From Fimbriiglobus ruber (GTDB lineage: Bacteria; Planctomycetota; Planctomycetia; Gemmatales; Gemmataceae): a DNA stretch of 64,000 bases. Positions within the stretch are counted from its first letter, which is position 1; each line of letters begins with the position of its first letter. Below, piece by piece: positions 21,862 through 49,197 of this stretch. The translations under genes were made by a program, and so were the position numbers. The notes beneath the pieces are model-generated. The model saw nothing but the letters and a program-made list of their open reading frames with translations. It ran no database searches and had not been told where the DNA came from. The stretch is from NCBI RefSeq assembly GCF_002197845.1, contig NZ_NIDE01000008.1:310001-374000 (forward strand), written 5' to 3'.

Positions 21862-22169
21862 TTTTTTTCCAAGGGCGGGCGGCCCGCTCCAGGGCGGCGG
21901 ACCCGTCCCGGCGGGAGGTTGGCAAAAGCCGACCCTAACTCTTGGCGTCCCCGGCGAATGGTCTGGACGTGGAGGCCTGTGATGGAGGATACCAGGCGGT
22001 CACCGCCGTGGCCGATGCGCTGGGCTTCCCAGGCCGCCAGCCAGCGTCGCTGTTGCTCGTTGAGCCGACTGAGGAGCAAGTTGAGTTGTCGGTGGACCTC
22101 CTTGTTGGGATGGTCTGTCGCCTGGAGGCAATCAGGACATCGACATTGGTGAAGCGGGGTAGGGTGCAT
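21834..22169 (-). CDS. ISAzo13-family transposase, orfA part (N-terminal helical domain)
   Basis: From ATG 22169 (MHPTPLHQCRCPDCLQA) the frame encodes about 100 residues with a helix-turn-helix-like segment (LVSSITGLHVQTIRRGRQEL) and a basic, Pro/Gly-rich linker, and it ends at a stop at 21834 shortly after GRPPLEKK. At PLEKK the DNA is A_AAA_AAG in the correct phase for -1 slippage into the DDE frame. Unusual for the family, which is mostly described with one open frame; a simple one-base indel in the A-run is the alternative. Confidence 0.75.
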   Translation of the reverse strand: MHPTPLHQCRCPDCLQATDHPNKEVHRQLNLLLSRLNEQQRRWLAAWEAQRIGHGGDRLVSSITGLHVQTIRRGRQELGSAFANLPPGRVRRPGAGRPPLEKKIRSWSETW

Positions 22170-22305
22170 GATGTGGTCTCCAGCTGACGCAACAAGCCAT
22201 GCAAGTGATTGTAGGGACAAGGGTGAAGTAATTGTTCCGGCCGCCCTTAGCGGGCAAACCGCTTCCCGGCAAACGGATTCAGTACACAGCCTCTCGGAGC
22301 AATCC

Positions 22306-24029: not shown

Positions 24030-25031
24030 TTAGTAGCTGGCCGTAATCACTTCGCCGTTCGACCGGGTGACGAGTGCCGCGAAAGTTCCGACGTCGACAG
24101 ACGAGGCGATGAAGCGGACCGACCCGTCGCCCATCAGCGTGTTGACGCCGCCGGTGTGGAAGGAGTACGGGGCGCTGCTGCCTTCGGTGCCGAACGTCGC
24201 GTTATTGTAGCCGCCGTACTGGGTGTAGTAGTCGAACCCGTTGGTGCAACCGACGGCGCAGGTGCCGGGGAAGCTGGTGCCGTCCGACGTCGAGGTGTAG
24301 AAGTCCAGGTCGGACGCGGGCCGGGACCACCCGCCGCCGTTGACTTGGACGGCCGTGGGCGTGCCGAAGGGCTTGTTGATCCGGAAGATCTGCGGGCGAC
24401 CGGCCGATTCCGTGACCATGACCGTGTTCGAGAGGCCGTCGGTCACCGAAGCCACGCGGATCTGGATCAGTTGGCCGGCCACGGTACTCTTCTGCATGAT
24501 CCCGGGAAGGTCCGTGCCGGTCGCGTTCACGTTGGTAGCGAGGTGCGAAACGCTGGTCGAGGCCGCGTAGTCAGTGAGCGCCACGATATTCCAGGTGTTC
24601 GTGGAGGGGTCGCCGTCCAGGGCGGTCGGGTGCTGGGCCGAGGGGCAGACGAAAATTTTGATCGTCTTCGACGTCACCGACAGGTTGGACGCGCCCGAGG
24701 TGTTCGTGGTGTTGTCGAACCAGTTCTTGGTCGGGTCGTAGATGTTGCGGATGTTGCCTTGCTCGATGAAAGGCAACACGCCGATCGTCCAGCTGATCCG
24801 CGGCCCGGTCGCCGGCCGCACGCTGTTCGGGAAATACTGGTAGGCGCTCTCGTAGTTGTAGATCGACAGCCCGATTTGTTTGAGATTGTTGGAGCAGGTC
24901 GACCGGGCCGCGGCCTCGCGGACTTTCTGAACGGCCGGGAGCAACAATCCGATCAGAATGGCAATGATGGCGATAACCACAAGCAATTCGATCAGAGTGA
25001 AACCACGGCGAGTTGGGCGGGTCGATGTCAC
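24030..25031 (-). CDS. DUF1559 type II pseudopilin (H-X9-DG), second copy
   Basis: 333 residues from GTG 25031, which has GAGGA eight bases upstream; a longer open frame to 25115 has no such site. Prepilin motif [19 protein letters not shown], then [20 protein letters not shown] and the signature [20 protein letters not shown] (His, nine residues, Asp-Gly). It is only distantly similar to the neighbouring copy after the leader, so the two are old paralogues, not a recent duplication. The prepilin leader is the shared targeting signal. Confidence 0.93.
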
Positions 25032-25340
25032 GTTCGTGTCCTCGTTTAAAGCCCGAAAGATCCTTGCGTCTAGCGGGCTCAGCATGTGGGGAAAAAACTC
25101 GACTTTGAAGAGCAACTTGGTCGTGTTGAAAAAGATATCGACATAATCACGACTTATCCAGTCGTAAAAGTCGTGTTTTATGGTTTCAAAATCACAAAAT
25201 CATATTTAATAAAGACTTAAAATTTTCATAAATAACAATGGCTCAGTTCCTGACGAATTGGGTTCGTTTTGCAAAAATCCATTTTCCAGACCATGCACCC
25301 GCGAAAGCGACTCAAAATCTGACATCGGATCGTGTGATAA
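25032..25340. other. AT-rich upstream region of the pseudopilin gene
   Basis: Upstream region of the pseudopilin gene at 24030-25031. It contains an AT-rich block (about 25130-25240) that is unusual for this GC-rich window and may hold its promoter. No gene is seen. The remaining 25591-25797 holds the second direct repeat of the palindromic element and the leader of the next gene. Confidence 0.45.
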
Positions 25341-25388
25341 GATTTGGCGCAGTGGGAGACGGGAAAATGACTTCGGGAAAAAAAGCTC

Positions 25389-25590
25389 GGCTCATGAAGC
25401 GTCAGAAGTGGAAGCATCACGACGTAATGAGCGCACCGGCGCTCGGCGCGGGTCTCCGACCCCGCCGTTCGACCCGACCGCAGGTCTCCCGTCCCACGGC
25501 TCGTGCCCATCCGGTCGGTGTCTCGTGCGGCGTGCGTCGGGAGACCTGCGGTCGGCCGAATGGCGGGGTCGGAGACCCGCGCCGAGCGCC
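25389..25590. repeat. palindromic hairpin repeat, copy 1
   Basis: Arms 25438-25491 and 25538-25590, nearly perfect over about 53 bp, with a 46-nt loop. It starts with ggctcatgaagcg, also present in copy 2, and ends gccgagcgcc. Direct repeats of about 48 bp (25341 and 25591, beginning gatttggcgcagtg) flank it, 250 bp apart. Lies in the intergenic region before the 25798 gene; no coding frame is credible. Confidence 0.85.
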
Positions 25591-25797
25591 GATTTGGCGC
25601 AGTGTGAGACGGCAAAATGACTTCGGGTAAAAAAGGCTCTTCCTTGCCCGCTCCCAGCCGTTCAGATGCTGTGCTTCTTCGCTCCTTGGATGAGTTACCG
25701 AGACGTGGTTGCCGGATTCGCGTATAAGTTGCCGATGTAACCCCCGTGGCTAATCCCGATATCGGGCCGAACCATTCGTTGCGAACGGGAGAACGAC

Positions 25798-26904
25798 GTG
25801 ACGGTCCAACCCCTCGACTTGAGCCGGCTCAAGGTCTTCCCGCTCGCCGAACGGAAGAGCCTGACCCGGGCGGACGACATCCTGATCGCCCCGGACGACC
25901 CACCCAAGCCGTGTCCGGAACCGATCGCCCGACTCGTCCGGGAGTGCGCCGAGCAGGTCGCGGCGGCCCGCGAGCGGGACGCGAGCGTGATGCTCATTTA
26001 CGGCGCCCATCTCCTCCGCAACGGGGCCGCCCGCGTGCTCGAACGCATGATGGCCCGCGGGTGGCTGACCCACCTCGCTACGAACGGGGCCGGCACGATT
26101 CACGACTGGGAATACGCCTGGTTCGGAGCCTCGACCGAGAGCGTCGAGATGGGCGTCGCGGGTGGGACGTTCGGCACCTGGCACGAGACGGCGACCAACA
26201 TCCACCTCGCGATCATGGTGGGAGCCGTGGACGGCCTCGGGTACGGCCGTTCGCTCGGCCGTCTGATCGCGGAAGACGGCGTCACACTCCCTTCGCCGGA
26301 GGATTTGGCGCGTCAGATCGCCGCCGCCCCAGCTGACCCGCTCGCCGGACCGCGGGTCGAACTCCTGCGGGCGATGCGCGAACACGGCTGGCCAGCCGGG
26401 CGCATGACCGTCTCGCACAACTGGAAGCACGCCTCGATTCTGGCCCAGGCTTACCACCACCAGGTTCCCGTGACCGTTCACCCGGGCATCGGGTACGACA
26501 TCATCTCGAACCACCCGATTTTTAACGGGGCGGTGATCGGCCGGGCCGCGGAGTGGGATTTCAAATTGTTCGGCGGTTCGGTGAACGGCCTCGATGGCGG
26601 AGTCGTTTTGTCCGTCGGGTCGGCCATCATGGGGCCGCAGGTGTTTGAAAAGAGCCTGAGTTGCGTGAACAACCTCCGCCTCCAGGCCGGTCGCGACGTC
26701 GTCCGCGGACACACGATTTACGTGGTCGATCTTCAGGACGGCGGCGGATGGGACTGGACGACTGGGGAACCGCCGAAGTCGAACCCGGCGTACTACCTTC
26801 GCTTCTGCAAAAGCTACTCGCGAATGGGCGGGGCGATGCAATACGTCCAGTGCGACAACGCGGCGTTCGTCCACAGCCTCTACCACGCCCTCTGCCGCGG
26901 TTGA
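25798..26904 (+). CDS. conserved protein, possibly deoxyhypusine-synthase-like
   Basis: 368 residues from GTG 25798. The pattern YGAHLLRNGAARVLERMMARG, then THLATNGAGTIHDWEYAWFG and VTVHPGIGYDIISNHPIFNG, is that of a Rossmann-like NAD-binding conserved family with some likeness to deoxyhypusine/homospermidine synthases. The Lys in MTVSHNWKHASIL could be the functional lysine, but I cannot verify this. Bacteria lack eIF5A, so the substrate would be different, perhaps a polyamine. The protein has no signal peptide or TM segment. It converges with the amidotransferase gene (32 bp between stops). Family assignment is tentative; existence of the gene is certain. Confidence 0.7.
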   Translation: MTVQPLDLSRLKVFPLAERKSLTRADDILIAPDDPPKPCPEPIARLVRECAEQVAAARERDASVMLIYGAHLLRNGAARVLERMMARGWLTHLATNGAGTIHDWEYAWFGASTESVEMGVAGGTFGTWHETATNIHLAIMVGAVDGLGYGRSLGRLIAEDGVTLPSPEDLARQIAAAPADPLAGPRVELLRAMREHGWPAGRMTVSHNWKHASILAQAYHHQVPVTVHPGIGYDIISNHPIFNGAVIGRAAEWDFKLFGGSVNGLDGGVVLSVGSAIMGPQVFEKSLSCVNNLRLQAGRDVVRGHTIYVVDLQDGGGWDWTTGEPPKSNPAYYLRFCKSYSRMGGAMQYVQCDNAAFVHSLYHALCRG

Positions 26905-26936
26905 GCGCGTGCGGAAATGGGCTCGCGGCGTAGTGG

Positions 26937-27677
26937 TTATCCACCTGCCGCCGAGACGAACGACGCGAACAGGCGGCGCATACACGGCTGGGTGCGGATC
27001 AACTCTTCGGGGTGCCACTGGGCACCGATCAGGAACTGATCGCCGGTTCCCTCGACGCCTTCGATGATCCCGTCCGGCGAAAACCCGGTCGCCCGCAAGC
27101 CGTCCGCGAGGTGCTTGATAGCCTGGTGGTGCAGGCTGTTTACCGGCACCACGCTCTCGCCCAGGATGTCCGCGAGCCGCGACCCCGACGAGATCGCGGC
27201 CTCGTGCGCCAGATAGGTCCGGTCGGTGTGCGACGGGGTGGTGAAGTAGTCGTGCTTGAGCGCGGCCGGGACCTCGGTGGCGATGTCCTGGTAGAGCGTT
27301 CCGCCCAGAGCGACGTTCAGGATCTGGATGCCGCGGCAGACCGCCAGGACCGGCAACCCGCGCCCGGCCGCGTGGTGAATCGCGGCGATCTCGACGTCGT
27401 CACGGGCCGGGTCCGTCGGCCCGCACGCGGCCGACTTCGGCTCGCCGTACCGGTCGGGGTCGATGTCCGCCCCGCCGACCAGGAACACCCCGTCGAGCCG
27501 GGCGAAGATCTCCTCCAGGCCCGCGGAGTCGTCCTGGAGCGAGGGAATGATCCACGGCACGGCGCCGACGGCCCGGAGCGCTTCGACGTACTTGTATCCC
27601 ATCATCCAACACGCGCTACGCTCGCCGGACACCTCGGCGAGGGTTTGCGTGATGAGCCCGATGACCGGTCGCCCCAT
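26937..27677 (-). CDS. class I glutamine amidotransferase-like gamma-glutamyl hydrolase (PuuD type, peptidase C26)
   Basis: 246 residues from ATG 27677, with GAGGT just upstream. The GATase-1 triad is clear: the nucleophile Cys in LAVCRGIQILNVALGG, and His and Glu in IGAQWHPEELI; NSLHHQAIK is also conserved in the C26 group. The fold suggests hydrolysis of gamma-glutamyl amides such as gamma-glutamyl-GABA in putrescine breakdown. The neighbour at 25798 may act on polyamines, which would fit, but that is inference. No puu operon partners are present. Confidence 0.88.
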   Translation of the reverse strand: MGRPVIGLITQTLAEVSGERSACWMMGYKYVEALRAVGAVPWIIPSLQDDSAGLEEIFARLDGVFLVGGADIDPDRYGEPKSAACGPTDPARDDVEIAAIHHAAGRGLPVLAVCRGIQILNVALGGTLYQDIATEVPAALKHDYFTTPSHTDRTYLAHEAAISSGSRLADILGESVVPVNSLHHQAIKHLADGLRATGFSPDGIIEGVEGTGDQFLIGAQWHPEELIRTQPCMRRLFASFVSAAGG

Positions 27678-27815
27678 GACCACCTCGCACCAATAAGTCC
27701 CACGTTCAGAAGACGACGGTCAGGGCGTAGCGACCCCGGATCGGCCGTCGAAACCGATCCGACCCGCGGAGAGGAATGCGTAAACGGGGCACGCGGAAGG
27801 GGGAACGTGGGCTAG

Positions 27816-28772
27816 TTACCGCCGCAGGAGCCACCGCGTCGGGGCGCCGTTTTTCGGCCCGTCGCTGACGACGAGTAACTCGTATTCCGTGCCGGACTGC
27901 TTGAGTACGGCCACGCCTTCGAGTTTCCCGGCGCTTTTCGGGGCTTTGGGGAATTCGGCCAGAAGGGTCGTCTTCCCGGGGTTTTCCGGAGCCAGGCCGT
28001 CTTTGCCGTCCCAGTGGTAGAGGCGGGTCGAGGCGTCCCCGTCTCCCATCGGACCGGCCAGAACGAGAAACCCGTCCGCGACGGCGACCAGATCGCGGAC
28101 GCCGCGGCCGTCGAGATTAATGTACCCCACGTTCGCCGTCCCCGCGGGGTCGGCGAACGTGCAGTTGAGGACCGGCACCCAGTTGTCGCGGAGGACCGGC
28201 CCGCGGAAGCCGAAATACAGTCGCCCGGCTTTGAATGCAAGCCCTTCAATGTCAATTCCGTTTTCTTTACTCGCCTGCACCGCGAACGGGCCGAGAACCT
28301 TGTGATTCTTCAACACGTCCCGGAGCGAGGTCGTCTTCACCTCGCCCGGCTTCCCGTCATCTCCCAAGGTGAACTGGAACACCTGTGCACGGCTCGGCTT
28401 GTCGTCCACCGAACCCACGCCCCCGCCGCCCTTCTGGCCAATGTTTCGAATCCGGTTGTGCGACCCGGAGACGTAAACCGTGGCCCCGTCCGCCGCGACC
28501 GCCTCAATGTCGATTTCCATGTCGGGCGGCCCGAGTGGGAGCGTGTAGGCGACTTCATACCCGCCCTCAATCTTCCTCATCACTTCGACCGTCGGGGACT
28601 CGTCCGACACCACGACGCGAAAATCCCCGGCCACGGCGGCGCCGCTAACATCGTTCGGCCCGCCGATCTCGCCCTTAAATTCGACCGGCCCGATCGGGGT
28701 CAGCCTGGGTGCGTTGTCGTCAGCGAGGGCGGTGGCGGCGAACACGCACAGTAAAATCGCAACGCGGGGCAT
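27816..28772 (-). CDS. secreted DUF3616-like protein
   Basis: 318 residues: a signal peptide (MPRVAILLCVFAATALA) and a beta-propeller-like body with SDESPTVEVMRKIEGGY, DIEAVAADGATVYVSGSHNR and EGVAVLKQSGTEYELLVVSDG. The EIDIEAVA and GIDIEGLAF motifs are those of DUF3616 proteins. No catalytic residues are known for the family, and a role in binding or in an esterase-like reaction remains open. The gene stands alone, between an amidotransferase gene and an unrelated small gene. Confidence 0.75.
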   Translation of the reverse strand: MPRVAILLCVFAATALADDNAPRLTPIGPVEFKGEIGGPNDVSGAAVAGDFRVVVSDESPTVEVMRKIEGGYEVAYTLPLGPPDMEIDIEAVAADGATVYVSGSHNRIRNIGQKGGGGVGSVDDKPSRAQVFQFTLGDDGKPGEVKTTSLRDVLKNHKVLGPFAVQASKENGIDIEGLAFKAGRLYFGFRGPVLRDNWVPVLNCTFADPAGTANVGYINLDGRGVRDLVAVADGFLVLAGPMGDGDASTRLYHWDGKDGLAPENPGKTTLLAEFPKAPKSAGKLEGVAVLKQSGTEYELLVVSDGPKNGAPTRWLLRR

Positions 28773-28879
28773 GGTGTATCTCTGAGAAAATCGACCCGGC
28801 GACGAGTTATTATAGTCCCACTAACAAGTGTACTGCCCCGGTGGATTATGAAAACATCGATAATTTTACTGTTGTAATC

Positions 28880-29374
28880 CTATTTTATGTTCCCGGAATC
28901 GGCTTCCCCAAAACATATCAACCAGTCCGGAATCACGCCCGCGGCGGCTTGCGTTTCTTGATCGGTGGCGGACGGCTCGAGAACTTCACGAACAACGATC
29001 ACAACTGACGAGACACCGGCGGGGCACCACACGTTCGCGGCTTCGCTCAGGCGGGCGGCCAGCCATTCTTCCTCCGCAAACTGCCGCCTACCGCGGTCTG
29101 CCAGTTCAGCGGTTTCTTCTCGCGAAAGGCATGTGGCCTGGTAGTGCTGGCCGTCCACGCTACCGGGGCCGGGCACCTCGTCGCCCATGAGCCAACGGTC
29201 GATCCATTCGCAATAGTAAACAAGGGGCAAAAGCGGGGCGTTGGCGCGAAGCGTAGTACAGAAACGATCGACCCCGGGCGGGTCGGGCTGCGAAGCCCAC
29301 GAACGGAAAAGCGTAGCTGCCAGATCTGCCGATTGACCGATCAGCGTCGCGACCGTCAACCGTTGTGTAGCCAT
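28880..29374 (-). CDS. hypothetical protein, 164 residues
   Basis: Starts MATQRLTVATLIGQSADLAA. No motif is recognised; the protein is mainly helical by eye, with an aromatic-rich stretch (LVYYCEWIDRWLMGDEVPG) and no TM segment. Codon use matches the surroundings. Divergent from the DUF4291 gene 110 bp away; the two could share a control region. Function unknown. Confidence 0.55.
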   Translation of the reverse strand: MATQRLTVATLIGQSADLAATLFRSWASQPDPPGVDRFCTTLRANAPLLPLVYYCEWIDRWLMGDEVPGPGSVDGQHYQATCLSREETAELADRGRRQFAEEEWLAARLSEAANVWCPAGVSSVVIVVREVLEPSATDQETQAAAGVIPDWLICFGEADSGNIK

Positions 29375-29485
29375 GGCTCATTGTCCAATTTGTTACCGGC
29401 TCGAATTGCGGCGAACCTCGCACCTGGTCAAGCCGTCGTACCTCTCAGCTGCCCGCTTCCCCCATGCGAACAGAGAATTGTTCCC

Positions 29486-30133
29486 GTGCTGCTGACCGAA
29501 CTGTACGCCGATCAGGTCAAGGTTTGGCCGAAAGCCGGCCGCCACATCCTCGCGCAGTATGACGACGAGACGGTCGTAGTCTACCAGGCGTATCGCGCGT
29601 CGATCGGCCGGTTCGCCGTCGAACACGGGCGATTCGGCGGGGATTTCCGTTACTCGCGCATGAGCTGGGTCAAACCCAACTTCCTCTGGATGATGTACCG
29701 TTCGGGCTGGGGAACAAAAGTGGACCAGGAAGTGACCTTGGCCCTGCGGATCAGGCGCACGTTTTTTGACGCGGTTTTAGCCGAGGCAGTTCCTTCCACC
29801 TGGGACCGGGAACAGTTCGCCACCGCTGACGAGTGGGAGCGGGCGGTCACCCGTTCGTCGGTGCGCTTGCAGTGGGACCCGGACCATCATCCGTCGGGGG
29901 CCAAGCTCGAACGCCGGGCCGTCCAACTCGGTTTACGAGGCGAGGTGTTGGAAGCGTTCGGCCAGCGGGAGTTGGTGGAAGTAATTGACCTGTCGGAGTT
30001 CGTCGCGGCTCAGCGGGAGCAGTTGGCGGCGGACGGGGTGGCGGCACTCGTCACCCCGCGCGAGCGTGTATACCGTCCGGCCGATCCGGCGGTCGCTTTA
30101 CGGTTGGGCCTCGCGGACGTAGAGATTGGATGA
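29486..30133 (+). CDS. DUF4291 family protein
   Basis: About 215 residues from GTG 29486 (VLLTELYADQVKVWPKAGRH); a longer frame back to 29144 overlaps the divergent gene and lacks conservation. DUF4291 hallmarks: HILAQYDDETVVVYQAYRAS, SRMSWVKPNFLWMMYRSGWG and RLQWDPDHHPSGAKLERRAV with the QLGLRG segment. The family is widespread in bacteria and fungi and its biochemical role is unknown. The ribosome binding site is weak, so the start is uncertain. It converges with the chitinase-like gene, with a hairpin between. Confidence 0.88.
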   Translation: MLLTELYADQVKVWPKAGRHILAQYDDETVVVYQAYRASIGRFAVEHGRFGGDFRYSRMSWVKPNFLWMMYRSGWGTKVDQEVTLALRIRRTFFDAVLAEAVPSTWDREQFATADEWERAVTRSSVRLQWDPDHHPSGAKLERRAVQLGLRGEVLEAFGQRELVEVIDLSEFVAAQREQLAADGVAALVTPRERVYRPADPAVALRLGLADVEIG

Positions 30134-30136
30134 ATT

Positions 30137-30176
30137 CGACCGGGCCGCCGGAAATCCCCTCGATCCGGCCCGGTCG
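30137..30176. terminator. bidirectional hairpin terminator
   Basis: Arms CGACCGGGCCG (30137-30147) and CGGCCCGGTCG (30166-30176), perfect over 11 bp, 18-nt loop. It begins four bases after the DUF4291 stop and lies between that gene and the convergent GH18 gene. Confidence 0.65.
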
Positions 30177-30198
30177 TGAATACCCACCGGCTACGAGG

Positions 30199-32238
30199 TC
30201 AGCCCACGAATGGTGCAAACGTGTCTACAAACTCGTATTGCGATTGAATCAAACTGCTGGAATTCGTGTCCACGTAACTGAGCGCCCCCGCCGGGCTTTG
30301 TTGGTCGCGGTTCAGTGACCACATCGACAACAGGCCGATTCCGTGCTGGGCGGCCCACGCTTCCAACTGCTGGGCGTCTGCGACCGTGAATGTTTCGGTC
30401 GTCAGGTCGTTCAACCCGATCATCGGGGTTACGCCGATCATCGCCCACCGTTGGGTCGCGGTGGTACTCGACCCGTACAGCGTGGTGAGCTGGCCGTATA
30501 AACTGGTCGCGGCCTCGATCGCGTAAGTGCCCATTTGGCCGGCCGGGTTCGGGGCCGCGTTGTCGCCGTAGTCCATCGCCATGATGTTGACGACGTCCAC
30601 CCGCGCACCGTATTGCTTGGCCGATTGCAGGACGTACAGGCCGTTCGCGTCGAGACCGGTCGGGAGGACCGGGAGGGTAAACCGAACGTTCAAATTGATG
30701 CCCGCGGCGGCCGCTTCCTTTTCCACGATCGCGATGGCCTGGGACCGCCGATCGATCGAGGCCTTGTCGGCCACCGCCGCCCCTTCGATGTCGAAGTCGA
30801 TGTGGGTCAGGTTGTACGTCTGGATCACTGACCAGTACGCGGCGGCAAGACTGTTGACGTTGGTGATGACCTGGGCCAACTCCAGCCCGCTCGCCCCGCC
30901 GAACGAGACCGCCACGTCTCCACCCAGAGCCCGCAGGGCCGTGATTTGCGATTGCAGCTGGGTGCTGAAAGTCGTACCGGCGGTTTCGTAAGTCGAGTAC
31001 CCGCCCCAGGCCGGCTGGCCTGATGGGTCAGCCGTGATGAACGCAAGGGTGAAGAACTTGTCTCCGGTTGCCTTCGCCGCCGACACGAAATCGTAAGTCG
31101 GCCACGCCGTCGCGTCGACGTAGGGGGCAACCACGTGGGCGGGCCAGGCCGGAGCGATCGGCGGGCTGACCGGTGCGGGATTCACCTGAACGGAGACGGT
31201 CGCCTGGGACGTGCCGCCGCGCCCGTCGGAGATGGCGTAGGTGAACGTGTCCGTCCCGGTGAACCCGGCGGCTGGGGTATACGTCACCGTCCCGTTGGTG
31301 TTCACGACGACCGACCCGTGGGCCGCCGGACCGGCCGAGGTGACCGACAGCGGGTCGCCGTCCGGGTCGGTGTCGTTCGCCAATACCGAGATCTGGACGG
31401 CTTGCCCGGCCGTGGTGACCGCCGAGTCGTTTACGGCGGTTGGGGCGTGGTTAACCGGCGGGACGGGCGGGGCGACCGGGGGTGGAGAAAGAGTGGTGCC
31501 GCCGACTGTGACTACCAGATCAGAGGCCGACACCCCGCCGGGGGTGGCGCCAAAGCCGATGTCCGCTGACCCGCCAGCCGGGATGGTCGAGTTCCAGGAC
31601 GCGGCGCTTACGGTGTAGCGATTACCAACGTGGCTCACAATCGTTCCGTTCCAGATCGAACTGATTTGGCCTGGGAAGTTAAACGAGACCTGCCAGTTCG
31701 ATGCGGCGGTGGCTCCGGTGTTTTTGAGTGTGATGTCGCCGTTCAGACCGCTGCCCCAGTCGCTCGTGGTGGCATAAGTCGCCTGAACGGAGGCGACCGG
31801 CGGGGGCACCGGGGGAGAGACTGGCGGGCTGGCGGGGGGAGAGGTCGCACCGCCATTGAGGGCGACCCCATCGAGGACGAACCCGTTCGCCGTGGTGGAA
31901 CCTGCCGCGGTCGCACCAACCGCGGTGGCGATGAAGCCGAATGACACCGACCCGCCGGCCGGGATCGAAGCGTCCCATCCGCTGTTCGTCACCGTGTAAT
32001 GATTGCCGGTGTGCGACACCATATTGGCGTCCCAGATGGACGTAATATTCGCCGACAAGGAAAACTGCAGATTGCTGAAGGCGACCGCGGCGGTGCCGTC
32101 GTTGGTCAGTTCGACCTGGCCCTGGAATCCGCTTCCCCAATTCTCCGTGACGGAGTAAATGGCGTGGGCGGCCGGGACCGAGCGGTCTTCCAGCCTATCG
32201 ATGTCGAGCCGGGAACGATGCAAGGGAGAGCGAGACAT
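30199..32238 (-). CDS. exported CBM2 / Ig-like / GH18 chitinase-like protein
   Basis: 679 residues from ATG 32238 (MSRSPLHRSRLDIDRLEDRSVPA), with AAAGGG upstream; the frame extends to 32475 but that part is not conserved. The LEDRSVPA motif is a common N-terminal feature of planctomycete surface proteins. Next are two cellulose-binding-like CBM2 modules (each with W-G-S-G and IPAGGS), Pro-rich linkers (PPVSPPVPPP), an Ig/cadherin-like module (NDTDPDGDPLSVTSAG) and a GH18 domain with the catalytic DxDxE in HIDFDIEGAA. It should be a secreted polysaccharide-binding enzyme for chitin-like or cellulose-like substrates. Confidence 0.88.
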   Translation of the reverse strand: MSRSPLHRSRLDIDRLEDRSVPAAHAIYSVTENWGSGFQGQVELTNDGTAAVAFSNLQFSLSANITSIWDANMVSHTGNHYTVTNSGWDASIPAGGSVSFGFIATAVGATAAGSTTANGFVLDGVALNGGATSPPASPPVSPPVPPPVASVQATYATTSDWGSGLNGDITLKNTGATAASNWQVSFNFPGQISSIWNGTIVSHVGNRYTVSAASWNSTIPAGGSADIGFGATPGGVSASDLVVTVGGTTLSPPPVAPPVPPVNHAPTAVNDSAVTTAGQAVQISVLANDTDPDGDPLSVTSAGPAAHGSVVVNTNGTVTYTPAAGFTGTDTFTYAISDGRGGTSQATVSVQVNPAPVSPPIAPAWPAHVVAPYVDATAWPTYDFVSAAKATGDKFFTLAFITADPSGQPAWGGYSTYETAGTTFSTQLQSQITALRALGGDVAVSFGGASGLELAQVITNVNSLAAAYWSVIQTYNLTHIDFDIEGAAVADKASIDRRSQAIAIVEKEAAAAGINLNVRFTLPVLPTGLDANGLYVLQSAKQYGARVDVVNIMAMDYGDNAAPNPAGQMGTYAIEAATSLYGQLTTLYGSSTTATQRWAMIGVTPMIGLNDLTTETFTVADAQQLEAWAAQHGIGLLSMWSLNRDQQSPAGALSYVDTNSSSLIQSQYEFVDTFAPFVG

Positions 32239-32503
32239 GTGAAGCCCTTTCGATCCAAAGTGTGAGAAAGAGTCGTACTCGGTGAACGGTCCGAGGAGCA
32301 TGTGGACAGTTCGGAAGAATGGGTGCGGACCTAACACCGCGATCGAGAATTTTTTCAGCCACTTCGCGGTCGTTTTTGAGTTGTGGATCGCACGGAAAAT
32401 GATCGGGTAGCAATAGCCACAGAAAGGCGTCGATCGTCGTGGGCAGGCGGTCTCATTCCCGTGCGTAAAATGCACTTCTGGTCAGAACCGCACGGGGTTT
32501 TTC

Positions 32504-33769
32504 ATGCACGTTTTGCTCAACCCGGTCGGGAGCCACGGCGACGTTCACCCGTTTATCGGTCTCGGCCGGGCACTGGCGGCCCGCGGGCACCAGATAACAC
32601 TCATCACGGCGGCGCCGTTCCGCGGCCTGGCCGAAGCGAACGGGTGGGCGTTTGCCCAGGTCGGGACGGATGATTTCTTCGAGACGATGATCGGCAACCC
32701 CGATCTCTGGCACCCCCGCAAGTCGATCAGCCTGTTGTTCTCGGACTCCGGGATTCCGCAAACCCTTCGCGAGTCATTCGCGCACATCCAGTCCCGGTAC
32801 GTCCGCGGCGACACGGTTTTGGTGGCCGGGTCACTCGGGATGGCCGCCCGAATTGCCTACGACGCCCTGGGCATCCCGCTGGCTACCGTCCACCTTCAAC
32901 CGTCCCTGTTCGCCAGCGTCGAGGCTCCGCCGGTGTTCGCGACCGTCCGATTCCGTGGGTGGTGGCCCAGCTGGTTCCGGCGGTTCTTGTACTGGTTCGG
33001 AGACCGGGCGCTCGTCGACCCGAAACTCGGGCCGCACGTGAACGCATTTCGGCAGGAACTCGGGCTCGCGCCGGTCCGGCGGATTCTCGGCCGCTGGCTC
33101 CATTCGCCCCAACGAGTGATCGGATTCTTTCCCGATTGGTACGGGTCGGCCGGGGACTGGCCGCCGCAGGTTCGGACGACGGGATTTGTGTTCTATGACC
33201 GGGAAGAGAATCAGGAATTGCCGCCGAACGTCCGCTCGTTTTTGGATGCGGGTACGCCGCCGGTCGTGTTCACGTTCGGCTCGGCCATGCGGTTTGCCGG
33301 GCCGTATTTTGCGGTCGCGGTCGAAGCCTGTCGGCGGCTGGGTATTCGCGGGTTGCTGCTGGGTAAGGGACGTGACGTGGTTCCGCCCGACCTGCCGGCG
33401 AGCGTCCTCCACGCGGAATACGCCCCGTTCAGCCTGGTCCTACCACGGGCCGCAGCGGTTGTTCACCACGGCGGGATCGGGACGAGCGCGCAGGCCATGC
33501 AGGCGGGAATACGTCAGCTCATCGTCCCGTTCGCGTTCGACCAGCCGGACAACGCCGACCGACTCGCCCGGCTCGGAGTCGCGCGGGTTGTCTATCCGCG
33601 GGCGTTTAATACCACGAATGTCGCCACCGAACTCAAGACCCTGCTGACCGCGCCCGAGGTTGATCGCGCGTGTCAGGTCGTAGCGGCGAGATTCGCTGGG
33701 ACCGACCCGTTGGAGGAGACTTGCCGACTCGTTGAGGAACTTCGCGGCACCGACCGCCCGGTCGCGTAA
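32504..33769 (+). CDS. GT1-family glycosyltransferase (UGT/MGT-like)
   Basis: 421 residues. N-terminal acceptor-side motif NPVGSHGDVHPFIGLGRAL and C-terminal donor-side motif VVHHGGIGTSAQAMQAGIRQLIVPFAFDQPDNADRL are those of sterol or macrolide glucosyltransferases (GT-B fold). A nucleotide-sugar donor is likely; the acceptor may be a lipid or sterol. It has no signal peptide. It is a single gene between the exported GH18 protein and the kinase, with no clear operon partner. The start is at ATG 32504; the divergent GH18 gene begins 266 bp upstream. Confidence 0.88.
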   Translation: MHVLLNPVGSHGDVHPFIGLGRALAARGHQITLITAAPFRGLAEANGWAFAQVGTDDFFETMIGNPDLWHPRKSISLLFSDSGIPQTLRESFAHIQSRYVRGDTVLVAGSLGMAARIAYDALGIPLATVHLQPSLFASVEAPPVFATVRFRGWWPSWFRRFLYWFGDRALVDPKLGPHVNAFRQELGLAPVRRILGRWLHSPQRVIGFFPDWYGSAGDWPPQVRTTGFVFYDREENQELPPNVRSFLDAGTPPVVFTFGSAMRFAGPYFAVAVEACRRLGIRGLLLGKGRDVVPPDLPASVLHAEYAPFSLVLPRAAAVVHHGGIGTSAQAMQAGIRQLIVPFAFDQPDNADRLARLGVARVVYPRAFNTTNVATELKTLLTAPEVDRACQVVAARFAGTDPLEETCRLVEELRGTDRPVA

Positions 33770-33800
33770 TGTGGAGCTATCCGGTCCGCCCGACAACGGA

Positions 33801-35240
33801 TCACTTTGGGGTCAGTAGGCGAGACGCTTCCTGTACCCACTTGGTCGCCTTGGGTGCGACGATCTGTGCGGCGATCATCGTCACGATGAGAATCCCGAGG
33901 CCGACTAATCCGGTCCGGATGCGCTGTCGCATCTTGCCGCTGGTTGGTTTCGGCGGCGCGACAGACACCCAGCCTTTGCGGGAGCGCGGGCGTTTCATTT
34001 TGGGCAACTGCTTTTCAACACTTTCCAGTACTGTCAGCACATCCCGGATCGACCCGGGCCGACCGTTCGGGTGCCTTACGAGGAGCAGATCGACCAACCC
34101 GGCGAGCGGGAGCGGCATGCGCGGGTTTTCTGCGACCAACTTTCGAGCCGGCCCGAAAGTTGGCTTTTCGTCCAGAGCCGGGAAGGGAGCAACCCCGGTA
34201 AAAAGGGCATGGATCACACACCCGAGGCTGTACAAATCGGCCCGGTGGTCAATGGCCCCGCCGGAGGCTTGCTCGGGCGACGTGAACCCCGATGTGCCGT
34301 CCGTGCGGATGAGCCCGAACTCGAGCAGTTTGACGCCTCCGTCACTTTCTTCGAGCCAAATGTTCGCGGGCTTCAAGTCGCGGTGGGTGAAACCGTGGTC
34401 GTGGATCGCGGCCAAGCCGGTAGCCACCTGCTTGGCGATCTGAACCGCGTCGTACAGATTCAACCGGGCTCCACGCTTTAACCGCGCGTTCAGGGTTTCC
34501 CCGCGAAGGAACTGCGTGGCCAAAAACGGAACCCCATTGTCTTCCACGACTTGATAGACGGGAACGACGTTCGGGTGGTTGAGGGCGGCGATGGCCTGGC
34601 CCTGTTGGATGAAGTGGCGTCGGACCTCGGGATCATTCGCACTTGTCGGCGGCATTATTTTGAGGGCGACCATTCGCCGCAGGTATACGTCCTCGGCCTG
34701 AAATACGACTCCGACCGAACCGACTCCCAGCTTTTTCAGAATGCGATACGGCCCGATCCGCCCGATTTCGTCTGGCGACTGAGCCGGTCGTAGCCCCGTG
34801 CTCTGATTCGCGGGGACCAACGTCAGGACCGGCAGGTCGATATCCGCGACCGTCCTGGCGGAAGCTCGGGTCAGTGTCTGGTCGTCGGGAGATAAGCCGA
34901 TGGAGCGGTCGGTCGCACCGGGGAGGAAGGGTATCGTCGCCGATAATGGGCGGGTCGGGTTCGGAGCCGCCAGACGATCGGCCGCACAGGGCGTATCGTC
35001 CTCTCGTTCGTGGAGCGCAGACTGAAGGGATGCCAGGAGTGGTTCACGCCGGCCGAGGACGGACTCGACGGAACTGAGGACGCTTGCTTCGGCTCGCAAC
35101 GACCGGACCGCGAGCACGCATTTCGGGCATTCGGCGACGTGGGCCGCCCACCGGCGGACGTCGTCGGGAGCGGCAGCGGTGTCGGCCAACTGCCGGAACG
35201 CGTCGAGAGTCAGACACGGGATCGTGGCAGCGGTGGCCAT
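33801..35240 (-). CDS. zinc-finger, membrane-anchored Ser/Thr kinase, probably a pseudokinase
   Basis: 479 residues from ATG 35240; the longer frame to 35444 overlaps the next gene. N-terminal anti-sigma-type zinc finger (His34, Cys38, Cys41 in AAHVAECPKC). Hanks kinase domain ~160-430: glycine loop LGVGSVGVVF, Lys194, catalytic loop THRDLKPANI (286-295). Two key positions are altered: DFG is EFG (307-309) and the alphaC Glu is Gln (FIQQGQAIAALNHP). A TM segment follows near the C-terminus (GLVGLGILIVTMIAA). Either low activity or a signal-sensing pseudokinase; the finger suggests a partnership with an ECF sigma factor. Confidence 0.9.
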   Translation of the reverse strand: MATAATIPCLTLDAFRQLADTAAAPDDVRRWAAHVAECPKCVLAVRSLRAEASVLSSVESVLGRREPLLASLQSALHEREDDTPCAADRLAAPNPTRPLSATIPFLPGATDRSIGLSPDDQTLTRASARTVADIDLPVLTLVPANQSTGLRPAQSPDEIGRIGPYRILKKLGVGSVGVVFQAEDVYLRRMVALKIMPPTSANDPEVRRHFIQQGQAIAALNHPNVVPVYQVVEDNGVPFLATQFLRGETLNARLKRGARLNLYDAVQIAKQVATGLAAIHDHGFTHRDLKPANIWLEESDGGVKLLEFGLIRTDGTSGFTSPEQASGGAIDHRADLYSLGCVIHALFTGVAPFPALDEKPTFGPARKLVAENPRMPLPLAGLVDLLLVRHPNGRPGSIRDVLTVLESVEKQLPKMKRPRSRKGWVSVAPPKPTSGKMRQRIRTGLVGLGILIVTMIAAQIVAPKATKWVQEASRLLTPK

Positions 35241-35296
35241 GCGAATTCCGGCGCCGGTGGGGGCAGCGTGGGGGGGAATAAGGGGCGGCGGCACGC

Positions 35297-35686
35297 TCAG
35301 ACGAAATCGAACACACGAAAGCCGAGTGACTTGGCCCGCACAAAGACGCCGCGGTCCGAAAGCATCAAACGGGCCTGGCTCTTGGCAGCCTGCGCGCGGG
35401 TGGTCGCGTCGTATCGCGTTTTGACCCCGGTAGCCGCCGACCAACCACTCGCACGGGGGCCGACACTGGTGGATGTTTTGGTCACGTCCTCGCGGGCAAG
35501 CAGATAGTCCCGCGTGACGAGGTGGAGTTTGTCCGCGTTGGATAACCAGTCGCGGTGCGTGCCGACGGGAACCCCCCGCTGGTCAATGACCGTGAGTTGG
35601 TGCAGGTTGGCGGTCATCCGCGGGTGTTCGACGAACCCCATCGCGACCGCACACGCGAGGTCGAAATCAATCGGAGGAGCAGCCAT
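35297..35686 (-). CDS. hypothetical protein, 129 residues
   Basis: From ATG 35686 (MAAPPIDFDLACAVAMGFVE). No family recognised. It has a beta-rich centre (LHQLTVIDQRGVPVGTHRDW) and an Arg/Lys-rich C-terminus (DRGVFVRAKSLGFRVFDFV). It lies 56 bp upstream of the kinase gene and in the same direction, so it may be co-transcribed with it. The in-frame extension up to 35776 is not supported by a ribosome binding site. Confidence 0.55.
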   Translation of the reverse strand: MAAPPIDFDLACAVAMGFVEHPRMTANLHQLTVIDQRGVPVGTHRDWLSNADKLHLVTRDYLLAREDVTKTSTSVGPRASGWSAATGVKTRYDATTRAQAAKSQARLMLSDRGVFVRAKSLGFRVFDFV

Positions 35687-35945
35687 GGTGTGCCTCGTCG
35701 TCCGTGCTAGGGAAGGCACCGGGCGAATTGTCCGGAGCGAACGAAAAACTTTAGGCCACCCATTCCGACCTGTCAAAGAAAGGTGATGTGGGAAAAGAGT
35801 TGATGTGTCGCATAAACTCTGGGAAAAGCGAACGGACCCGTTAAACTCGGGGTTTTGCGGGAAATGAAAGGGGATTCAGCTCATTCGACATTAACGCCAA
35901 GCATTCCTCCATCGAAAATGAACAGCCCGCGGCCCGAGGAATGTT

Positions 35946-36161
35946 GGCTCATGAAGCGACAGAGGTGGAAAAAGGGTATAACCATCCTGTCGCAATCGCC
36001 CCCCCCGCATTGGCGCTCGGCGCGGGTCTCCGACCCCGCCGCTCTTCGCGACCGCAGGTCTCCCGACGCTTGCCCCCTCGGACACCGCCGCCTGCGTCAG
36101 GCTGGCGTGGGAGACCTGCGGTCGCGAAGAGCGGCGGGGTCGAAGACCCTCGCCGAGCGCC
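35946..36161. repeat. palindromic hairpin repeat, copy 2
   Basis: Arms 36012-36066 and 36108-36161, with the same ends as copy 1 (ggcgctcggcgcggg / gccgagcgcc). The inner arm changes on both sides: ctcttcgcgaccg pairs with cggtcgcgaagag. It begins with ggctcatgaagcg like copy 1. Direct repeats of about 28 bp (35912 and 36163, tcgaaa(a)tgaacagcccgcgg) flank it, again 250 bp apart. The right direct repeat is part of the terminator at 36175. Confidence 0.85.
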
Positions 36162-36174
36162 GTCGAAATGAACA

Positions 36175-36214
36175 GCCCGCGGCCCCGAGGAAATCATCCC
36201 TCGGGGCCGCGGGC
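36175..36214. terminator. strong hairpin terminator after the metalloprotease gene
   Basis: Arms GCCCGCGGCCCCGAGG (36175-36190) and CCTCGGGGCCGCGGGC (36199-36214), perfect over 16 bp with an 8-nt loop. It lies 42 bp beyond the stop of the minus-strand protease gene. Its left arm is duplicated next to the palindromic repeat at 35920-35940. Confidence 0.75.
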
Positions 36215-36256
36215 GGAGATCGAAACCTGGCGGGCGTCGTTCGCCGCCGGGTCACG

Positions 36257-39037
<2,781 letters not shown>

Positions 39038-39326
39038 TTCGACACCTCGGCATCGCCAATATGGGTGACCTGGGTAACCTGTATAAACGGTTCCGGTCGG
39101 TTCCGCCAATCAGATCGCATCAAGTGGCGGGATTTTTACGGCGGGCTGCCGATATGATTGGTCGGATAGGTAAAGTGTACGGAATCTGTCAAGTCGGGCG
39201 GTTTGGGTTGCACCGGATGCGCCGATCACAGCAGATGCCGGGACTGCGATCGTCATCGTCTGAAAAACGGTACGAAAGAGAACGAAGAGCGAGGAGACAG
39301 TTGGGAGGCGGCGGCGAGAAGCGGGC

Positions 39327-40706
39327 TCAAGCCGACGGGTTGCCCATCAGGTACGCGCGGAGTTCGACGAACACTTTGCCGCAGCGGTCGCGCCACCCGT
39401 CGTCGCCCAGCAGTGGGGCGTGCGACGGGCGGAACATGACGTGAATCGAGAGTTTGTTTTCCTGCCGGGGGTCCGCCCGGTGCAGGTACAGTTCGATGTC
39501 CAGGGCACCGGTCGCCCGCTTGCCGAACCCGAACCACGACATGGACGTCGGCGTCCGCGTCTTGGTGAGGCGGACGCGGATCATCCCGGGGACGCTTTCG
39601 AGGACTTCGCCGCCGCAGTCGTGGACGAAGCCGCGGAGTTTCATGATCGCGATCTTCTCCGGCATCCAGGCTTCCATGTGGAATTGGAGTACGGATTGTT
39701 CGCGGAGCGCGACGTGGGTGCGCGAGGCTTGGCGGCCGGCCGTGGTGCTGAGGGCGAGCGGGATGACGTCCGACTCGTTCTCGGACGGCAGCGCGGGGAT
39801 CAGATACCCCGAACCACCGGTGCCGGCCGTGAGAGCATCTTGACCGATCTGGGCCTTCTGAACAGCCGCCGCGAACCGCTCGGCCAACTCCCGGGCCGAC
39901 TGCGGGCGGTCTTCCGGGGCCTTGGCCAGCAGGTCGAAGACCAATTCCTCGACGGCGGGCGGAACCCACCCGTCGAGGCCGATTTCGGCGAACGTCGGCG
40001 GCGATTCGGTCGCGTGGGCGAGCAACACGTCCATACCCGAGGCGCCCTGGAACGGCAGCCGGCCGGTCAGCAGCTCGTACATCATCACGCCGACCGAGTA
40101 GAGGTCGCCGCGGTGGTCCATCAGTTCGCCGCGGACCTGTTCGGGTGCGATGTACCCGGGCGTCCCGACGGCGAAGTCGACGTTCGTGTCCGTCACCTTG
40201 CGGGCGGCGCCCTCGGCGACGAGCTTGGCCAGCCCGAAGTCCATGACCTTGACCCGTTCCCGCGGGGTTTCCGGGTCGAGGATCATCAGGTTGGCCGGCT
40301 TCAAGTCCCGGTGGATGATGCCCTCATCATGGGCGGCCTGGAGCACCTCGCACAACTGGCCGATGATGCGATCGACCCGCGGGGCGGTCATCCGCCCGCT
40401 CTTGGCGAGCATCGCCTCCAGGTTGACCCCTTTGACGTACTCCATGACGATACACGGCCCGGCCGGGTCGTTCAGGGAGGCGTCGTACAGGGTGACGGCG
40501 TTGGCGTGCTGGAACCGGGCCATCAGCAGCGTTTCGCGCTGAAAGCGGTCCCGAAACTTCGGGTCTTCGGCGATGTGGTCGTGCATGACTTTCACGACCA
40601 CCTGGCGTCCGAGGTCGACCTGGCGGGCCAAATAGACCCGGCCCATGCCGCCTTCGCCGAGTAGGCGTTGAACTTCGTACCGACCTAAAAACACCCGTCC
40701 GATCAT
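39327..40706 (-). CDS. Ser/Thr protein kinase (Hanks type) with a C-terminal beta domain
   Basis: 459 residues from ATG 40706 (MIGRVFLGRYEVQRLLGEGG). All catalytic motifs are intact: LGEGGMGRVYLARQVD, Lys in VVVKVMHDH, HRDLKPANLMI, VMDFGLAKLV and GTPGYIAPEQVRGEL. The kinase domain occupies ~10-275. A region of about 170 residues follows (QSVLQFHMEAWMPEKIAIMK and later IELYLHRADPRQENKLSIHV), with no TM segment, unlike PknB-type kinases. It may bind a regulator or substrate; the domain is not recognised. The gene stands between the metalloprotease and the palindromic repeat. Confidence 0.92.
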   Translation of the reverse strand: MIGRVFLGRYEVQRLLGEGGMGRVYLARQVDLGRQVVVKVMHDHIAEDPKFRDRFQRETLLMARFQHANAVTLYDASLNDPAGPCIVMEYVKGVNLEAMLAKSGRMTAPRVDRIIGQLCEVLQAAHDEGIIHRDLKPANLMILDPETPRERVKVMDFGLAKLVAEGAARKVTDTNVDFAVGTPGYIAPEQVRGELMDHRGDLYSVGVMMYELLTGRLPFQGASGMDVLLAHATESPPTFAEIGLDGWVPPAVEELVFDLLAKAPEDRPQSARELAERFAAAVQKAQIGQDALTAGTGGSGYLIPALPSENESDVIPLALSTTAGRQASRTHVALREQSVLQFHMEAWMPEKIAIMKLRGFVHDCGGEVLESVPGMIRVRLTKTRTPTSMSWFGFGKRATGALDIELYLHRADPRQENKLSIHVMFRPSHAPLLGDDGWRDRCGKVFVELRAYLMGNPSA

Positions 40707-40944
40707 ATCGGGGGCACGCTCCAAACCGACTGGTGGGGGAAAAGTCGGCGTGCGGAAGTGTAGAGCGTATTCGGAGCGCTGCCAACTGGTTTCAATCCGG
40801 CCCAGGAGTTCGAGCGGGCCGGAAAGGTGCTACGGGAGCTGAAGTGGCGGGGGATGCCGATTGAGATGCCTGGTCGTGGGCGAGTTCTCGTCCGCAGCAT
40901 AAAATTCAGACCCAGACGGCTGCGGATATGCTCGTAAACATCTC

Positions 40945-41117
40945 GCGCCCGGCGCTCGGCGCGGGTCTCCGACCCCGCCGTTCGGCCCGACCGCAGGTCT
41001 CCCGTCCCACGGCGCGTACACATCCGGTCGGGGTCCCCGTGCGGCGAGCGTCAGGCGGGAGGAGACCTGCGGTCGGGCCGAACGGCGGGGTCGGAGACCC
41101 GCGCCGAGCGCCGGGCG
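40945..41117. repeat. palindromic hairpin repeat, copy 3
   Basis: Arms 40945-41003 and 41060-41117. The same outer sequence as copies 1 and 2 is followed by ttcggcccgaccg on the left and its complement cggtcgggccgaa on the right. The loop differs in length and sequence. I see no flanking direct repeats here and no ggctcatgaagcg start. Located in the 0.5-kb region between the kinase start and the MBL gene end; the rest of that region contains no gene I can support. Confidence 0.85.
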
Positions 41118-41214
41118 GCGCGCATCGGACGGGAGGCTGCCGCACGGTCAAAGAGTTCGTGTCGGACGGTGTTGCCGCCCGGCCGTGTCTATTCCCGGCA
41201 CCCACGCCGGCGGC

Positions 41215-42015
41215 CTATTTCTTCGGCGCCGCCGCTTCGTCTTTCTTCCAATTGAGGACGACGATGGTGTAGGTGGCTGCCTTCATGTCCGCCGGGATGA
41301 CGAGTTCGTTGGTCGTCGGCATCCGCTTGACGTTCGGCTGTTCGTCCAGAAATTCGTCCGCGGAAAGGAGTTCGTCCACGCCCGGCAAGCGGTAGTGCAT
41401 CGGGAGGACGTACAGCTTGGGTTTAATCTGGTCGACGACCTTTTTCGCCCGTTCGCCGTTCAGCGTAAAAATCCCGCCGACCGGAACCATCAGCACGTCG
41501 ACCGGGCCGATCGCCTTGACCTGACCGGGCGTGAGTTCGTGCGCCACGTCGCCGAGGTGGCAGAACGTCATCCCTTCCGCGTCGATCACGAACGCGCTAT
41601 TCTTCCCGCGCGTCATGCCGTCTTCCTGGTCGTGGAAAAGCGGCACGGTGCGGACGCGAATCCGCCCGACCTTCTCGTCGATACGGTTCCATTCGGGCGG
41701 ACGGCCCTTCTTGCCCTCTTCCAACCCCATGAACACCCGGGCGGACTTGGCGTTCTCGACGGAAGCAAGCTGGGTGTGGTCGTTGTGCAGGTGGGAGCAG
41801 ACCACGATGTCAGCCGGAACTTGCAGGCGGCCGAATTCGGGAATTGCGTGCGGATCGAATACGATCTTTTTCCCGGACGGCGTCTCGACCTGGAAAAACG
41901 ACTGGCCGAACCATCGGACGATAAATTTCTTCTCCGAATCCTGGGCGGCGACCGATCCGACGGTCAGGAAGAGGGTGGCTGAAGCGAAAAACGCGCGGAG
42001 AGACACTGACAACAT
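41215..42015 (-). CDS. MBL-fold metallo-hydrolase, secreted
   Basis: 266 residues with a signal peptide (MLSVSLRAFFASATLFLTVG). The metal motif is VCSHLHNDHTQL (HxHxDH), followed by FCHLGDVAHEL with a further His ligand and VLPMHYRLPG. The layout is UlaG-like, short and single-domain. Hydrolysis of a phosphoester or lactone is the family's usual reaction; the substrate cannot be told from sequence. Export is unusual for this group and suggests action in the periplasm. The gene stands alone with a MITE downstream of its start region. Confidence 0.88.
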   Translation of the reverse strand: MLSVSLRAFFASATLFLTVGSVAAQDSEKKFIVRWFGQSFFQVETPSGKKIVFDPHAIPEFGRLQVPADIVVCSHLHNDHTQLASVENAKSARVFMGLEEGKKGRPPEWNRIDEKVGRIRVRTVPLFHDQEDGMTRGKNSAFVIDAEGMTFCHLGDVAHELTPGQVKAIGPVDVLMVPVGGIFTLNGERAKKVVDQIKPKLYVLPMHYRLPGVDELLSADEFLDEQPNVKRMPTTNELVIPADMKAATYTIVVLNWKKDEAAAPKK

Positions 42016-48599: not shown

Positions 48600-49197
48600 T
48601 CCTAGTGGGTCACTTGGGTCGAGCATATCCATTCGCGGCCTGGTATAATTGTTGTAATCGCCCGAAAGGGTCCCCATGCCGCGCCGTCAGAAGAACCCCT
48701 CCGCCCGCTGACCGCCGAAGAACGGGCGGAACTCACAGCGCTCAGCCATGCCCACTCGGCCCCGGCCATAGAGGTAACCCGTGCAACGCTTCTTCTGCTC
48801 GTGAGTGGTGGGCAAGCGTATCAGTGTGCGGCCGACACGGTCGGTCGCAAGAGCGGAGATGCAGTCGCCCACTTGGTCGCCCGATTCAACACGGACGGTT
48901 TGGCCGCCGTCACGCCCCGACACGGAGGCGGACGTGTATCGATCGACGACGCGGACGCCCGGAACCGCATCTTGCGAGAAGCACGGCGAACGCCGACCCC
49001 ACAACACGATGGGACCGCGACGTGGTCGTTGACCCTGTTGCGTAAGGCACTGCGGACCGCCCCCGATGGGCTCCCGCGGGTGTCGACGTACACCATCTGG
49101 CGGGTTCGGCATGACGCCAAGTTTACCTTCCAGCGAACCCGCACCTGGTGTCCCACGGGTCAGGCGATCCGTAAACGCAAAGCGGGGGTGGTGACGG

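What the first reader, a model, noticed from the sequence alone, without database searches (positions are those of the whole stretch)
25389..41117. Dispersed hairpin repeat family with compensatory changes between arms
Three intergenic copies (25438-25590, 36012-36161, 40945-41117) share ~53-bp arms. Inner arm positions vary between copies, but each change is matched on the opposite arm: ttcgacccg, ctcttcgcg and ttcggcccg pair with their own complements or near-complements. Such covariation means the stem itself is maintained, by RNA folding or by a replication mechanism. I cannot match it to a known family; it could be a mobile hairpin (REP/MITE-like) or a structured RNA.
Basis: partly seen in the sequence, partly recalled or inferred. 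Interest (0 to 1): 0.65.

Follow-up and report, generated by a model that had tools for sequence, protein, structure and literature searches.

The report
Hairpin-cored MITE with REP-like units
The three hairpins are old copies of a small non-coding jumping DNA palindrome present about a hundred times in this planctomycete genome; its 50-letter building block, two tiny hairpins in a row, recurs in scattered planctomycetes and matches no repeat family I could find described.

Summary
The repeats are real: three of roughly 100 copies in a 12.36-Mb Gemmataceae genome (250 arm hits; a reversed-pattern control gave 1). Window copies 1 and 2 are one-ended: TIR at one end, the other end at the hairpin base, flanked by imperfect direct repeats of 48 and 33 bp. 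Such long repeats abut 15 of 96 elements, against 0.4 by chance. The claimed point-by-point compensation fails: in the conserved arm parts, 68 changes hit one arm and only 3 both. Copy 2 simply belongs to a second palindromic subfamily. Real covariation sits elsewhere. Each arm is a ~50-nt unit holding two mini-hairpins (H1, H2). The H1 stem covaries between copies and genomes, and the H2 loop is almost always GNA. The unit recurs, patchily, across Planctomycetota. No unit lies within about 1.5 kb of any of 40 Y1 transposase genes examined, and no autonomous partner was found. Best reading: a MITE carrying an inverted pair of REP-like units; one-ended copies arose when DNA synthesis switched template at the hairpin (inferred). 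New variant of a known kind.

The parts
25341..25388 (+). left direct repeat (48 bp) flanking copy 1
   Evidence: (D15)
25389..25410 (+). TIR of copy 1 (GGCTCATGAAGCGTCAGAAGTG, 3 mismatches to consensus GGCTCATGAGGCGGCAGAGGTG)
25411..25435 (+). linker of copy 1 between TIR and hairpin (shortened)
25436..25591 (.). hairpin of copy 1: unit (H1+H2), loop, inverted unit; arms imperfect, right TIR missing; element ends at hairpin base
25591..25639 (+). right direct repeat (49 bp) flanking copy 1
35909..35941 (+). left direct repeat (33 bp) flanking copy 2
35946..35967 (+). TIR of copy 2 (GGCTCATGAAGCGACAGAGGTG, 2 mismatches)
35968..36009 (+). linker of copy 2
36010..36162 (.). hairpin of copy 2 (subfamily GCTCTTCGC), right TIR missing
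36160..36192 (+). right direct repeat (33 bp) flanking copy 2, overlapping the last 3 bases of the hairpin end
40946..41117 (.). hairpin of copy 3 (57-bp perfect arms), no TIR, no direct repeats detected
41115..41138 (+). probable remnant of the right linker of copy 3
   Evidence: partial linker match for L090

Best explanation
The three hairpins are decayed copies of a non-autonomous transposable palindrome (MITE). SHOWN: the intact element is ~273 bp. Its order is 22-bp TIR, linker, a ~50-nt unit (mini-hairpins H1 and H2), a loop of 45-55 nt, the same unit inverted, linker, TIR. It is flanked by 8-bp AT-rich duplications. About a third of the copies are one-ended: one TIR remains, in an insertion context typical of intact copies, while the other side stops at the hairpin base. 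About 15 elements are flanked by long imperfect direct repeats (22-87 bp) that abut both junctions. INFERRED: intact copies are inserted in trans by a DDE transposase that is absent, or too diverged at its ends, in this assembly. At a palindrome this strong, DNA synthesis stalls; the nascent 3' end, folded at the hairpin base, restarts on sequence upstream of the insertion. This loses the far linker and TIR and duplicates the flank. Arms look co-varying because subfamilies differ by whole blocks and each is palindromic, so both arms change together when a subfamily forms. The unit itself is a REP-like hairpin module older than this MITE, acting as single-stranded DNA (inferred from GNA loops).
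For: Copy number and control. Intact elements with 8-bp TSD: 35 TIR pairs; 21 distinct with at most 2 mismatches in the TSD, 15 perfect. Element ends are bimodal: of 182 hairpin sides, 99 reach a TIR, 54 stop at the hairpin base, 29 partial. TIR junctions without a TIR partner, mostly one-ended elements, fit the target profile of intact ones (mean 3.1 against -4.9 background, p = 4e-22). Long direct repeats at both edges: 15/96 against 0.4 after shuffling flanks; in L128 the repeat includes a gene start, so it duplicates unique sequence. Extra arm copies in L098, L064 and L087 sit behind a few nt of the adjacent target, as template switching would leave. Conservation in intact copies: H1 0.006, H2 0-0.016 substitutions/site against TIR 0.05, linkers 0.10-0.16, loop 0.16. 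H1 covariation: score 0.243 against 0.137, 0/500; 0.152 against 0.045, 0/500. GNA loops.
Against: No autonomous element or transposase with these ends was found. No empty site in a relative was recovered: same-genus genomes matched only in coding sequence. Direct repeats have diverged by about 5-25%, so pre-existing repeats are hard to exclude at some sites, notably six with a GCATTTTTTGCATTTATTGCGC repeat. No clear microhomology at the switch points was seen by eye. Most one-ended copies show no long direct repeat. The low substitution rate of H1 and H2 is not explained by the MITE reading.
Confidence: 0.6

Rival explanations
1. REP/REPIN system: the inverted pair of units is a REPIN moved as single-stranded DNA by a Y1 (HUH) transposase; the MITE is a later passenger arrangement.
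For: Inverted pairs of a conserved ~50-nt hairpin unit, high copy, patchy across the phylum. Unit base is a precise element end. H2 loop nearly always GNA. Class 3 Y1 proteins, mainly in Planctomycetes, are reported to be flanked by atypical high-copy structures (PMC6006769).
Against: None of 40 Y1 genes from 13 unit-bearing genomes has a unit within about 1.5 kb; the three in this genome carry a Y1 motif of the IS200-like type. GTAG/CGTC feet were not seen. Y1 systems are not known to make 20-90 bp duplications (own knowledge).
Confidence: 0.15
2. Target-primed retrotransposition: a transcript ending in the hairpin is copied into a nicked target by a reverse transcriptase, giving variable 5' ends, a precise 3' end and long target duplications.
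For: Precise hairpin-side end, variable far end, variable-length long direct repeats, terminal stutter; 16 RT matches in this genome.
Against: Junctions at TIRs lacking a TIR partner fit the transposase target profile, which RT copying would not give. Only 3 RT matches in the genome richest in single units. Stutter units contain target bases, not only element bases.
Confidence: 0.08
3. Structured RNA or regulatory hairpin (terminator, mRNA stabiliser) kept by selection, with mobility incidental.
For: H1/H2 conserved about 20-fold better than loop and linkers in the same copies; H1 covaries across genomes.
Against: No Rfam family. The three copies sit in different gene arrangements, one upstream of both neighbours and two between same-strand genes. 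Patchy occurrence.
Confidence: 0.12
4. The long direct repeats existed before insertion, and elements landed between them.
For: At six loci the repeat belongs to the dispersed GCATTTTTTGCATTTATTGCGC family, which also occurs as an unoccupied tandem pair at 55954-56085.
Against: The repeats abut both junctions in 15 of 96 elements with many unrelated sequences; in L128 the repeat is the start of a gene. Chance landing exactly between two copies that often is unlikely.
Confidence: 0.15

Closest known systems
Bacterial MITEs (NEMIS, ERIC, RUP, Bcr1 type)
   Same: Short, non-coding, TIR-flanked, fixed-length target duplication, high copy, intergenic, folds into a long hairpin.
   Different: Core is an inverted pair of a phylum-wide hairpin unit; about half of the copies are one-ended or hairpin-only, ending at the hairpin base, some with long direct repeats.
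REP / BIME / REPIN elements
   Same: Small hairpin units, often in inverted pairs, many per genome, with arrays.
   Different: No GTAG or CGTC foot seen, two hairpins per unit, no Y1 gene near units; embedded in a TIR element in this genome.
Structures flanking class 3 TnpA-Y1 genes (PMC6006769)
   Same: High-copy atypical secondary structures reported mainly in Planctomycetes and Acidobacteria.
   Different: A lead, not a match.

Membership tests
MITE | Terminal inverted repeats | tested here: met
   22-bp TIR; 35 facing pairs within 450 bp
MITE | Fixed-length target site duplication | tested here: met
   8 bp, 21 distinct copies with at most 2 mismatches, 15 perfect
MITE | No coding capacity, under about 500 bp, high copy | tested here: met
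   ~273 bp, roughly 100 loci
MITE | Autonomous element with matching ends (helpful, not required: many MITE families lack a known one) | tested here: inconclusive
   None near single TIRs, ISL3 or IS1595 genes in this genome; could be lost, diverged or of another family
REP/REPIN | Short hairpin unit, inverted pairs, high copy | tested here: met
REP/REPIN | GTAG or CGTC foot at hairpin | tested here: not met
   outer ends read GCTCGGC, TTCGGC, TTGTGG or GCTGTGG
REP/REPIN | Cognate Y1 transposase gene flanked by the units | tested here: not met
   0 of 40 Y1 loci in 13 unit-bearing genomes; not every Y1 gene was fetched
Retro-element by target-primed reverse transcription | Associated RT and RNA intermediate | not testable with these tools
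   RT genes exist, no link shown
Rfam RNA family | Score above gathering threshold | tested here: not met
   best 47.6 bits against gathering 200

The most novel reading that the evidence does not exclude
The two-hairpin unit is a so far undescribed, phylum-wide family of single-stranded-DNA hairpin elements of Planctomycetota. It has its own dedicated enzyme, uses the hairpin base as its terminus, and integrates by a non-canonical route that copies 20-100 bp of the target. The MITE of this genome is a secondary capture of it.
Probability: 0.2. Interest if true: 0.75.

Novelty: new variant of a known kind. Interest (0 to 1): 0.45.

Why it matters
It adds what looks like an undescribed REP-like repeat family for a phylum with large, poorly annotated genomes, and shows it being carried inside a MITE. 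The one-ended copies with long flanking duplications, ending at the hairpin base, are a natural record of what a strong palindrome does at a replication fork, across dozens of independent sites. It also corrects a tempting inference: matched arm changes between a few palindrome copies need not mean selection on the stem.

Tried and rejected
Rfam: only eukaryotic miRNA models below threshold. Y1 transposase near units: none. RT genes: present but unlinked. A 1,990-bp TIR pair at C5:430874-432863 holds an IS1182-like transposase gene (recognised by eye, no family search), read as an insertion into the element rather than its autonomous form. Inner sides of single TIRs: no partner. ISL3 and IS1595 transposases: no matching ends. 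Are targets hairpins? Plain folding energy showed no excess. Against shuffles, insertion sites are slightly more structured (z below -3 in 8-14% against 3%), as expected for AT-richer intergenic DNA; not used. Empty sites in same-genus genomes: only coding matches. Plasmids, phages and viral contigs: no unit found. Papers containing the core sequence: only unrelated primers and genes. Organism: size and family suggest Fimbriiglobus ruber (memory, not verified; the genome paper is not held).

Full report
1. The observation. The three palindromes are at the stated coordinates. Copy 3 has 57-bp perfect arms, copy 2 96% over 53 bp, copy 1 is broken into two blocks with an indel. The 22-nt arm core gives 125 + 125 hits in the genome with up to 3 mismatches and 1 for the reversed control. 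The window is G000:C8:310001-374000 of a 12.36-Mb assembly.

2. The element is larger than the hairpin. Upstream of copies 1 and 2 stands GGCTCATGAAGCG..., matching a 22-bp sequence found 100 times, often as facing pairs about 273 bp apart. I fetched 108 loci. Thirty-five TIR pairs lie within 450 bp; 21 distinct ones have an 8-bp target duplication with at most 2 mismatches, 15 perfect. The intact element reads TIR, linker, H1, spacer, H2, loop, H2', spacer', H1', linker, TIR'. This is a MITE.

3. One-ended and hairpin-only forms. Of 94 classified elements, 35 have two TIRs, 35 one, 24 none. Ends are bimodal: 99 of 182 hairpin sides continue to a TIR, 54 stop within a few bases of GCCGAGCG, 29 are partial. 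The 8 bases next to TIRs that lack a partner (43 sites, mostly one-ended elements) fit the target profile of intact elements (p = 4e-22), so that side was made by the same transposase. Direct repeats abut both edges of 15 of 96 elements against 0.4 after exchanging flanks between loci; lengths run from 22 to 87 bp (one search lists more by laxer criteria). Copy 1 has 48/49 bp, copy 2 33 bp, copy 3 none. In L128 the repeat includes a gene start, so unique sequence was duplicated. In another genus (G023) 3 of 19 such pairs show edge repeats of 14, 29 and 45 bp. The 29-bp one is itself a dispersed repeat there, so this support is weaker.

4. Stutter. In L098 and L064 the hairpin end is followed by about 4-8 target bases, then part of the arm again, then the target in full; L087 shows the mirror image. 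Many loci of a metagenome bin (JAUIGN) carry tandem arrays whose unit joins the element end to a locus-specific stretch. I read this as slippage seeded at the junction (inference).

5. Covariation. The spacer block matches within a copy in 49 of 76 against 16.8 expected, but this reflects two palindromic subfamilies; 8 copies mix them. In H1 and H2, 68 changes are one-sided and 3 two-sided. So the 53-bp stem is not maintained by compensatory point changes. In contrast H1, GGTC-TCC-GACC with an outer stem, covaries. Within G023, 96.6% of cells pair, with 14 two-sided cells against 3.8 shuffled. Across the bulged type, 16 against 4.0. Related sequences inflate such counts; the slid controls (b) are much lower in both. 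Over 82 distinct H1s, 5.9 outer pairs against 2.9 shuffled. H2 loops in the unit orientation are GCA, GAA or GTA in almost all cases. GNA triloops closed by C-G are exceptionally stable in DNA (own knowledge), which points to single-stranded DNA rather than RNA; this is inference.

6. Conservation. In intact copies H1 and H2 carry 0-1.6% substitutions, TIRs 5%, linkers 10-16%, loop 16%. Either the unit is homogenised between copies or something recognises it. This is not explained by the MITE reading.

7. Distribution. In a sample of 292 phylum genomes at no more than 1 mismatch it is essentially confined to this genome. Diverged forms occur in other Gemmataceae. Hence patchy.

8. Partner. No unit lies within about 1.5 kb of 40 Y1 genes. 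No TIR-bearing transposase was found. RT genes exist without linkage.

9. Context. Copy 1 lies between a DUF1559 gene (24030-25115, minus) and an ORF with a sub-threshold ArgZ-like match (25798-26904, plus). Copy 2 lies between a kinase gene (33801-35444, minus) and a met-zincin gene (36257-39109, minus). Copy 3 lies between a kinase gene (39327-40724, minus) and a beta-lactamase-fold gene (41215-42015, minus). No common arrangement.

10. Conclusion. A MITE with an inverted pair of REP-like units at its core. Ordinary in kind, unusual in its unit, its one-ended forms and its long duplications. Literature searches found no description, within an open-access library only.

Noticed in passing
window 55954-56085: Tandem pair of a dispersed AT-rich repeat (GCATTTTTTGCATTTATTGCGCTGAAACCCC...GTTTTGGGACC), 80 bp apart; the same repeat forms the direct repeats around six hairpin loci (L032, L058, L060, L093, L122, L127).
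   Followed up: partly
window 20865-22251: ISAzo13-type insertion sequence: 33-bp inverted repeats around a DDE_Tnp_ISAZ013 gene (20890-21801, minus).
   Followed up: partly
window 46558-48231: Candidate IS with 31-bp inverted repeats around a truncated DDE_5 transposase ORF (46627-47745, minus).
   Followed up: partly
window 48602-51449: 34-bp inverted repeats 2.8 kb apart enclosing a DDE_Tnp_1 ORF (49209-50567, minus) and an HTH_32 ORF (48801-50393, plus).
   Followed up: partly
window 682-3777: 126-bp periodic repeats in TPR genes; the ORF at 682-2871 is a TPR-CHAT protein.
   Followed up: partly
L142-L258 (JAUIGN contigs): Tandem arrays at the outer end of single units, each array joining the element end to a locus-specific stretch of about 8-12 nt; looks like a minisatellite seeded at the insertion junction.
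   Followed up: partly
L333, L337, L344 (genome G023): Unit pairs flanked by long inverted, not direct, repeats, some built on another dispersed palindrome (TACCAGCCGCCTGACAGCGGCTGCT); probably a second MITE type carrying the unit.
   Followed up: no
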